Assembly (NCBI GenBank): GCA_031119525.1
Contig: JAVHXO010000004.1
Coordinates: 1 to 64,000 of the forward strand
Length of the DNA: 64,000 nt
DNA from: Spiroplasma sp.
GTDB lineage: Bacteria; Bacillota_I; Bacilli_A; Mycoplasmatales; VBWQ01
Direction of reading: 5' to 3'
In this document: piece by piece, positions 6,386-40,848 of the stretch
How the letters are laid out: every line of letters starts with the position of its first letter
How positions within the stretch are numbered: position 1 is the first letter of the stretch
The notes under the pieces: generated by a model
The model's database searches: none
Told to the model about the DNA's origin: nothing
What the model saw: the letters and a program-made list of their open reading frames with translations, nothing else
Made by a program: the position numbers and the translations under genes

Positions 6386-6474
6386 GCACCTCCAGCTTAG
6401 ACTCGCCTTATGAGGTGGTTTTGATAAAAACGCTTAAATACCTAAAAAGTGCGGTTGCAACTGTTTTCACAGCA
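6386..6474 (-). promoter_or_regulatory. L21-type ribosomal protein leader RNA
   Basis: The transcribed leader contains GCTGTGAAAACAG and GTTGCAACCGCACTTTTTAG. It ends in CCACCTC, ATAAGGCGAG and CTGGAGGTG. The CACCTC block can pair with GAGGTG, which is the rplU ribosome site, so the leader can hide its own start site. This agrees from memory with the Rfam L21 leader of Firmicutes. No covariance search was possible. Confidence 0.65.
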
Positions 6475-38314: not shown

Positions 38315-38453
38315 GTTTAAAAAATAATTCTTTTCCCTAATTTATTTAATCTAAAGTTTGAATTTATTAGATAAAACGGAAAAATATATTTATTTTAAAA
38401 AAAATAATAAAAAATTTCCTTGATTTTTTATTATTATTTGTTAAAATTTTTAT

Positions 38454-38482
38454 AAGGATTTAAGAAATCTTGAATCCTTTTT
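38454..38482 (+). terminator. Possible terminator of the large lipoprotein
   Basis: AAGGATT/AATCCTT stem, 12-base loop, then TTTTTAAT. It lies 140 bases after the lipoprotein stop. Confidence 0.5.
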
Positions 38483-38666
38483 AATAAGGTAATATGTAAC
38501 TTTTTAAGAATACTTGAATATATAAACAATATATAATAATTTAAATTAAAAATTAATCTAAAACCCCTAATTTAAACTCTATACCCCAATAACCTTAAGT
38601 TTTATTTATAAAATAAATTAATCCCCCTTTTTTTATAATTCATATTGCCTTAGATATTCTTGTATC

Positions 38667-38697
38667 ACAAGACTCACCAGAGTCTTGTTTTTTTTAT
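38667..38697 (+). terminator. Strong plus-strand terminator
   Basis: Perfect 9-bp stem ACAAGACTC/GAGTCTTGT with a 4-base loop and TTTTTTTATTTT. A second hairpin, AAAGGCATTCAA/TTGAATGCCTTT, follows at 38717-38742 inside the 3' end of the minus-strand RloB-like gene. Confidence 0.7.
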
Positions 38698-38698
38698 T

Positions 38699-39403
38699 TT
38701 AATTTTTAAATATTTTAAAGGCATTCAAACTTGAATGCCTTTTATTTAATATTCATATTCTTCTTTTTTTTGTTGAAATTTCTTGTTGTTCAATTTGTTC
38801 AACTTTCTTAACTCTTTTTGTTCTTTCTTTAACTTTTTCTTCAAAATTAAATAAAGTAATATTTGATCCTAAAGATTTTAATTTTGAATGCAAATTTTTA
38901 AAGTGTTTTTCAGTAAATATTTTATTAATAAAATGATTATGTTCTTTAAACTTTTCTTTTAAATCTCTATCACTACAATCCAAAATTTTTAAATGATGCC
39001 ATCTATAAAAAGTTTCAAAATTTCATCGTTCCGGCAATAATCAAATTTTAAAGTTTTCTTTTTTGATTTTGTTTTCAGATAAGTATTTTTTCAAATCTTC
39101 AAAAAGTTCATTCTCAATTGCTAGCATCTGTTCATTTTCTTTTTTAATACTAATTTGTTCATCATTATCTTTTCAAATAGCAATAAAAGCATACTTTGAA
39201 AGTTTTGTTCCTGTTCTTTTTAAATATTTAACTAATTTGTCAATGGTTAAAATTTGATTAATATCTCTTTTAATAAATGTAATCTCAGTAAATTTAATAA
39301 ATTTAGGTTTATTTTGTTTAATATAATTATTCAATTGTTGAAAATATTTTTCTTCTGCTAAATGTTTTGTTTTTCCCTCACAACAAATTAATAATAAAGC
39401 TAT
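38699..39403 (-). CDS. RloB-like protein (Toprim-like), partner of AAA ATPase
   Basis: About 234 residues. The N-terminus SIALLLICCEGKTKHLAEEKYF matches the RloB pattern (VCEGxxTExxYF). AFIAIWKDND fits the acidic strand, and FKIWLLPERWNFETFYRWHH fits the conserved FELWLLLHF region. All Trp but one are TGA. RloB-like proteins pair with AAA ATPases in bacterial defence modules (RloAB, AbiL). There is no ATG, GTG or TTG near the start. AAAAGGGGG stands before ATA codons at 39412 and 39403, and the second has normal spacing. The last 17 residues run through a hairpin and may not be functional. Confidence 0.6.
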
Positions 39404-39427
39404 TGACTCTATACCCCCTTTTCTGCA

Positions 39428-40657
39428 TTACATTAAATTCGATTCATCTTTTTTATTACTAAAATTTTCATAAATTTGATAAATATTATTAGATTCTGGA
39501 TGTGAATTGATTATTTCTAATATATAATTTTTTGAAAATAATTTATCATTTCTTTTATAATCATTAAAATTACTTAACTTCGCAAAGTTTTCATCAGAAT
39601 TATATAAACTAATATTAATACAACTATTGTGAAGTTCTATCTGATCAAAAATATAAGGATTATGTGTTGTGAAAAATAATTGTGAATTATTAAGATTAGT
39701 ATCATTAAAATAAAATAATCTTAAAATTGTATCAATAAGTGTTGGGTGTAAAGAATTTTCTATTTCATCAATTAAATAGAAATTTGTTTCATTTTTTCTT
39801 AAAATAATAGGTAACATAATAAAAATAAATCTTTTTGTTCCCACAGAAATATTATCTAACAAAACTTTAACAACTTTATCATTTTCTTGAACAAGAACAA
39901 TAATTTCATCTCTTAATTGATCGTATTCAAAATCAATAATATTAGGATCAACAGCAGAAATTAAATCTTTAATTAAATCAAATCGATTTTGAGTTTCTGA
40001 ATTTTTATTAAGAAAAAAATATTTTAAATCTTGTACTAATAAAGGTAACAACATATTATTTTCAAAAATACCTAAATTATTATTAAAAAATACAATATGT
40101 TTAATAAATTCAAAAAGTTTTTTAATTAAACTAATTTGCACTGAATTTAAATTAAACGATTCATCTTTTTCATATTGAGAAATTTCATTAAGTCGTCACA
40201 ATAATGAATATTTGTAGTTATTTTGAAAAATAAGACTTCAAGAATTATCTTTTTTTGCTTTATTTAAAATTGATAATTTTTCACAAGTAATTTGAAAATT
40301 TTCATTTAAATTAACTTCATGTTTTAAAACATTATCATCAATTAAGTATTCAAAATTAAATTGTTTTGGTTTTTTTTCTAATTCAAAAAAAAATCTAAAT
40401 TCTGGTTTATTAATATCAAAGTAGTGATTAAGTACAATAGTCTTATAAATAAGAATTGCCTCCAAAAATGAAGATTTACCTGTAGCATTAGCACCAATAA
40501 GCCCTGCAAGATTAAAAGTATAAGCAAAACCACCGTTAAGTAATTGATGCTTTCTAGTAACATCCTTATTTTTATCAGCAATATTTTTCTTAGTATAAAA
40601 TTCAACTTCAGCATTTTTTAAAGATTTAAAACCTTTAATATTAATTTTTGTAATCAT
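39428..40657 (-). CDS. AAA family ATPase (AAA_21/OLD-like), probable defence gene
   Basis: 409 residues. The N-terminus MITKINIKGFKSLKNAEVEF is typical of RecF/OLD-type ATPases. Walker A is GANATGKSSFLEAI (about residue 55). SVGTKRFIFIMLPIIL stands for the signature helix, and Walker B is FYLIDEIENSLHP. The switch histidine is in FFTTHNPYIFDQ. The gene is complete in table 4 (two TGA codons). AAGGGGGTGT precedes the ATG. The RloB-like gene follows at once, giving the two-gene layout of AbiL/RloAB-type phage defence. It separates the lipoprotein gene from the polA replication cluster, consistent with an inserted module. Confidence 0.82.
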
Positions 40658-40848
40658 ATTACACCCCCTTATTTAACTTTGTATTACGAAAATATTGTAG
40701 CACAAATTTTAAAATAATCATGCAAAAAATTAATTATTATTAATAGATTTTTTTATTTTAAAAAAAGATTTAAAAACTAATTTCAATGCCATAGTTCCCA
40801 AGATTGTTTGTTATAATTAAAAAGAAAAATATCGTACTTGGTGGAAAA

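What the first reader, a model, noticed from the sequence alone, without database searches (positions are those of the whole stretch)
38699..40657. AAA ATPase plus RloB-like pair: candidate AbiL/RloAB-type phage defence
An OLD/AAA_21-type ATPase with complete Walker motifs is followed directly by a protein with the RloB pattern CEGxxT and the WLL-region signature. Such pairs are known in abortive-infection and RloAB modules. Phage defence is little studied in wall-less bacteria, whose known viruses are small. The module sits between a lipoprotein gene and the conserved polA cluster, as an inserted accessory unit would.
Basis: partly seen in the sequence, partly recalled or inferred. Interest (0 to 1): 0.75.

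Follow-up and report, generated by a model that had tools for sequence, protein, structure and literature searches.

The report
AbiL phage-defence pair with broken effector
A two-gene phage-defence cassette of the known AbiL type sits beside the DNA polymerase I gene of a Spiroplasma related to ant symbionts; its killing gene carries a one-base frameshift here, and it lies next to a previously undescribed, strongly conserved small RNA gene.

Summary
The gene pair is real. ORF 40657-39428(-) is an AbiLi-type AAA ATPase (PADLOC AbiLi E=1.9e-40, Pfam AAA_21 6e-25) with all motifs intact. The next frame, 39427-38699(-), is a divergent AbiLii/RloB-like Toprim protein (PADLOC AbiLii 1.4e-4; below the Pfam RloB cut-off) that keeps the E...DxD residues.

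(1) The effector has no in-frame start before its catalytic motif. The ATG overlapping the abiLi stop is one base out of frame, because of an extra G in a G-run that is one shorter in the intact orthologue of Spiroplasma sp. JKS002669. The system is therefore probably effector-dead here, unless recoded or mis-assembled.
(2) A third genome of the genus has the empty site, so the cassette is an insert. The same interval carries other mobile elements in relatives.
(3) The "gap" beside it (38450-38692, +) is a single-copy structured small RNA gene in all 9 family genomes (fold z=-6.8, covarying helices, no Rfam match). It has 12 nt of perfect complementarity to the abiLii start. Regulation is possible but unproven.

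AAA+RloB pairs also occur in other Mycoplasmatales. Verdict: a new member of a known kind; the RNA is the more novel by-product.

The parts
39428..40657 (-). abiLi: AAA_21/OLD-type ATPase, 409 aa (code 4), strong SD AAGGGGG at 40664-40670
   Evidence: PADLOC AbiLi 1.9e-40; Pfam AAA_21 6.4e-25; Walker A/B, signature and switch His conserved
38699..39427 (-). abiLii frame: 242 codons, RloB/Toprim-like effector, open but without an in-frame standard start before CEGKT
   Evidence: PADLOC AbiLii 1.4e-4; E (CEG) and DxD (KDND) kept; 60% identical to the intact 200-aa orthologue in L003
39426..39428 (-). ATG overlapping the abiLi stop (TAATG); out of frame with the abiLii coding frame
   Evidence: the orthologue uses an ATG at the equivalent place in frame
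39414..39418 (-). GGGGG run; one G longer than in the intact orthologue (frameshift site)
38717..38742 (.). hairpin inside the C-terminal extension of the abiLii frame; the position matches a terminator-like hairpin of L003, where the orthologue has already stopped
38450..38692 (+). conserved small RNA gene, convergent to abiL: 5' hairpin, 12-bp long-range helix, C-rich unpaired core, terminator
   Evidence: 9/9 family genomes, fold z -6.8, 99.5% of helix cells paired
38420..38447 (+). promoter of the small RNA (TTGATT-16-TAAAAT, extended -10), conserved in relatives
38667..38688 (+). intrinsic terminator of the small RNA; stem changes in a compensated way between genomes
38576..38587 (+). ACUCUAUACCCC, C-rich segment of the invariant core of the small RNA, complementary to the abiLii start
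39406..39417 (-). GGGGUAUAGAGU at the start of abiLii (about codons 4-8): 12-nt perfect complement of the small RNA

Best explanation
It is an AbiL-type abortive-infection cassette inserted between a resident small RNA gene and polA in the common ancestor of two related Spiroplasma lineages, at least one of them an ant symbiont. By analogy with AbiL and PARIS (inferred, not shown here), the AAA ATPase AbiLi senses infection and holds the Toprim-like nuclease AbiLii inactive. Release of AbiLii would then cleave RNA or DNA and stop the infected cell. In the genome of this window the effector start is frameshifted by one base, so the pair is most likely an effector-dead remnant. The intact form is in Spiroplasma sp. 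JKS002669.
For: Family: AbiLi E=1.9e-40 and AbiLii E=1.4e-4; the intact orthologue hits Pfam RloB at 0.002 and AbiLii at 0.003. Catalytic-type acidic residues are kept across nine Mycoplasmatales relatives. Pairing: AAA plus RloB-like frames are adjacent in about ten further Mycoplasmatales loci. Insertion: a 65% identical copy at the same place in G001/L003; none in congener G002, where the element and polA are adjacent. Frameshift. abiLii dN/dS between G000 and G001 is 0.45, so it was constrained for most of its history. Mechanism by analogy: PMC10440598 (AbiLii as TOPRIM_OLD toxin, AAA as neutraliser), PMC12409363 (AriA holds and releases AriB, a Toprim tRNase).
Against: AbiLii is below the Pfam RloB cut-off, and the hhalign comparison with RloB proteins is weak. 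Both AlphaFold models failed (pLDDT 41 and 38), so the Toprim fold is not shown structurally. The frameshift rests on one assembly. No phage data exist for this host.
Confidence: 0.72

Rival explanations
1. The effector is intact in the living organism; the extra G is an assembly or amplification error, and this is a working AbiL system.
For: The rest of the frame is open for 240 codons and constrained; single-base indels in G-runs are a common error type.
Against: If the window is the EntAcro10 draft (inference from genus, size and contig number), it was assembled from 2x250 MiSeq reads with error checks (PMC6245734), and a 5-G run is short for an Illumina indel. The frame also runs about 43 codons past the stop of the orthologue into a hairpin, a second anomaly.
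Confidence: 0.2
2. AbiLii is still made from the frameshifted gene, by +1 frameshifting on AAAAGGGGG or by a non-standard start codon, as a low-level expression control.
For: The frame stays open and constrained; G-runs can cause slippage; ATA/ATT codons lie just after the G-run.
Against: The orthologue starts normally with ATG; no conserved recoding signal is visible with two sequences; 5 Gs is short for phase variation.
Confidence: 0.12
3. The neighbouring small RNA represses abiLii by pairing its ACUCUAUACCCC segment with the start of the gene, acting as an RNA brake on the toxin.
For: 12-nt perfect match at the start of abiLii in both genomes that have it; the exact 12-mer occurs only at these two places in G000 and in G001. 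It is the longest contiguous match among 212 start regions and ranks 2nd by duplex energy. The site uses rare codons ATA (7% of Ile) and GAG (10% of Glu). A tandem paralogous RNA in G005 and G007 keeps CUCUAUACCCC.
Against: The RNA is present in 7 family genomes without AbiL, and the longer seed of genus g2 has no start-site target. Shuffled-RNA p is only about 0.01. A similar match before an Abi_2 gene in G001 is not kept in its orthologues. Synonymous conservation of abiLii is high everywhere (80%), so conservation of the site adds little. C-rich RNAs match G-rich Shine-Dalgarno sites by composition.
Confidence: 0.22
4. The pair is not defence but a housekeeping or selfish OLD-like module.
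For: AAA_21 ATPases match dozens of systems, and function has not been tested in mollicutes.
Against: Patchy presence (14 of 320 order genomes), insertion at one site, and pairing with an RloB-like protein are typical of defence modules.
Confidence: 0.12

Closest known systems
AbiL of Lactococcus lactis (AbiLi + AbiLii)
   Same: Gene order, AAA ATPase then RloB/Toprim-like effector; best PADLOC matches for both proteins
   Different: Weak AbiLii similarity; chromosomal site next to polA rather than plasmid; effector frameshifted in this genome
RloA/RloB
   Same: AAA ATPase plus RloB-like CEG...DxD protein
   Different: RloB Pfam model scores below its cut-off (18.8 vs 31.5 bits for the intact orthologue); no restriction genes directly beside it
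PARIS (AriA/AriB)
   Same: AAA_15/AAA_21 sensor with a Toprim-type partner (AriA-model hit 3.6e-28); used as the mechanistic analogue
   Different: Partner hits AbiLii, not AriB; AbiLi model scores better than AriA
AbiF-RCd22 of C. difficile (Abi_2 protein with RNA antitoxin, PMC12373285)
   Same: An abortive-infection gene beside a non-coding RNA
   Different: There the RNA binds the protein; here the RNA predates the cassette and the idea is mRNA pairing only

Membership tests
AbiL | AbiLi ATPase | tested here: met
   PADLOC AbiLi E=1.9e-40, 136.9 bits; motifs intact
AbiL | AbiLii effector directly downstream | tested here: inconclusive
   PADLOC AbiLii E=1.4e-4; the frame is present but its start is frameshifted
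AbiL | Phage protection or toxicity of AbiLii | not testable with these tools
   needs an experiment
RloB (PF13707) | Match above the curated cut-off | tested here: not met
   no hit for the window frame; 18.8 of 31.5 bits for the intact orthologue
Toprim | Conserved E and DxD acidic residues | tested here: met
   CCEGKT and KDND; E16, E24 and D85 invariant in 9 relatives
Toprim | Toprim fold | tested here: inconclusive
   AlphaFold pLDDT 41, unusable
PARIS | AriB partner | tested here: not met
   no AriB-model hit for the second protein
known RNA families (Rfam 15), for the neighbouring RNA | Match to any family | tested here: not met
   none at E<=10 for the region or E<=1 for relatives

The most novel reading that the evidence does not exclude
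A resident, structured, C-rich small RNA of this Spiroplasma family silences the effector of an AbiL cassette that landed beside it, by pairing with the effector's translation start; acquired abortive-infection genes in wall-less bacteria would then be tamed by a host small RNA.
Probability: 0.2. Interest if true: 0.65.

Novelty: new member of a known kind. Interest (0 to 1): 0.38.

Why it matters
It documents AbiL-type defence in an insect-associated wall-less bacterium, with an empty site, an intact orthologue in a cultured relative and a broken effector, so gain and loss of a defence module can be followed. In the passages I read, the genome papers on the ant symbionts report only restriction and CRISPR systems as phage defences (PMC6245734, PMC12239587). 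The small RNA next to it is a lineage-conserved structured RNA with no Rfam family, in a group where regulatory RNAs are hardly studied.

Tried and rejected
Structure prediction of AbiLii and AbiLi with two-sequence alignments gave pLDDT 41 and 38, so no fold search was run. A profile scan of viral contigs with the distant effector alignment could not be made, and the ATPase found no viral relative. No plasmid carries an AbiLii relative by tblastn, and neither phages nor plasmids carry the RNA. The idea of an Abi regulon of the RNA (abiLii plus Abi_2 in G001) was dropped, because Abi_2 is present in all 9 genomes and its orthologues lack the site. The RNA as a known family was rejected, and so was the RNA as an order-wide feature: outside the family only 3-mismatch matches were found, at chance level. 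Conservation of the pairing site as an argument was weakened by high synonymous identity throughout the gene.

Full report
Observation. Under the Spiroplasma code, the window holds two co-directional minus-strand frames, 40657-39428 and 39427-38699. The first is a 409-aa ATPase with all P-loop motifs. The second is a 242-codon frame with CCEGKT, KDND and WNFE. The biologically expected start is the ATG of the TAATG overlap at 39428-39426, and it is out of frame.

Family. PADLOC models give AbiLi 1.9e-40 for the ATPase and AbiLii 1.4e-4 for the second frame. Pfam gives AAA_21 6.4e-25 for the first and nothing relevant for the second. The intact orthologue of the second gene reaches RloB at E=0.002, below the cut-off. 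Profile comparison with three AbiLii-like proteins of other mollicutes aligns most of the length at E=7.8e-4. The acidic residues typical of Toprim (E, and DxD) are kept across nine relatives. Published work places RloB and AbiLii among OLD_TOPRIM domains paired with AAA neutralisers (PMC10440598), and gives the best mechanistic analogue in AriA/AriB, where the ATPase holds a Toprim tRNase and releases it on sensing a phage protein (PMC12409363). That step is inferred here, not shown.

Distribution. The same cassette, 65% identical, stands at the same place in G001, which matches the contig of Spiroplasma sp. JKS002669 (L003); [quoted passage not shown] attinicola of that paper (PMC12239587). 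The third genome of the genus, G002 (744 kb, perhaps S. platyhelix; inference), has the empty site: the element ends at 615192 and polA starts at 615285. In the second genus of the family the same interval carries a phage-like insert, one of whose proteins weakly resembles M13 protein I (G007), or transposase-like genes (G008), so it is a recurrent insertion site. In the order, 14 of 320 genomes have an AbiLi-like ATPase and 12 have a Pfam RloB protein, and the two kinds of gene are adjacent in about ten loci.

Frameshift. Where the orthologue reads ATG TGA AGG GGT ATA GAG, the window has one more G in the run (39414-39418) and the ATG frame closes after about 33 codons. The correct frame has no ATG, GTG or TTG before the catalytic motif. 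The frame also runs about 43 codons beyond the orthologue's stop, into a hairpin. Between the two genomes abiLii has dN/dS 0.45, abiLi 0.65 and polA 0.24, so the gene was constrained for most of its history and the break is recent. If the window is the EntAcro10 draft (inferred from genus, size and contig number), it comes from MiSeq reads, which makes a homopolymer error less likely but does not exclude it.

The neighbour. Between the lipoprotein gene and abiLii lies a DNA element far more conserved than the genes around it: 96% identical in G001 and 75-80% in the other genus. It has a conserved extended -10 promoter (38420-38447), a 5' hairpin, a 12-pair long-range helix, an unpaired C-rich core that is almost invariant for about 35 nt, and a terminator whose stem changes in a compensated way. 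The window RNA folds at -47.4 kcal/mol, z=-6.8. In nine genomes 99.5% of helix cells are paired, the covariation score exceeds all 500 shuffles, and sliding the helix destroys pairing. Rfam has no match. The core is single-copy in all nine family genomes; outside the family it gives only 3-mismatch hits, as does the control pattern. I regard it as a real, undescribed small RNA gene on the plus strand, convergent to abiL.

Possible link. The conserved core contains ACUCUAUACCCC, the exact complement of GGGGUAUAGAGU at the start of abiLii in both genomes that have the gene. The exact 12-mer occurs nowhere else in G000 or G001. Among 212 start regions sampled from G000 it is the longest contiguous match (12 against 10 nt) and second by duplex energy; shuffling the RNA gives p near 0.01. 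Against this, the RNA exists in seven genomes without AbiL, no comparable start-site target was found in the other genus, and a second promising site before an Abi_2 gene is not conserved. The link is a testable hypothesis, not a result.

Verdict. An AbiL-type defence cassette, a new member of a known kind, probably disabled in this genome. The conserved small RNA is the more novel finding.

Noticed in passing
38420-38692 (+): Single-copy structured small RNA gene (promoter, covarying helices, C-rich conserved core, terminator), present in 9/9 genomes of the family, no Rfam match, usually next to polA.
   Followed up: yes
L029:3300-3520 (G005) and near G007:C1:265858: A second, tandem small RNA-like gene between the first RNA and polA that keeps CTCTATACCCC and ends in its own terminator; apparently a diverged duplicate.
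   Followed up: partly
L028 (G007:C1:265700-272450): A phage-like insert (a protein weakly similar to M13 protein I, and a replication-protein-like frame) between the small RNA and polA; in G008 transposase-like genes sit at the same place. The interval is a recurrent insertion site.
   Followed up: partly
L072 (G002:C1:729272): A mobile-looking 155-aa frame whose leader is complementary to three successive segments of the small RNA (11+5+12 nt), directly before its ATG.
   Followed up: partly
G000:C4:27145 and G000:C5:123613: Two Abi_2 (PF07751) genes in the window's genome; an Abi_2 gene is present in every genome of the family, unusual for an abortive-infection gene.
   Followed up: partly
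window 6389-6466 (-): Ribosomal protein L21 leader (Rfam RF00559, 59 bits).
   Followed up: no
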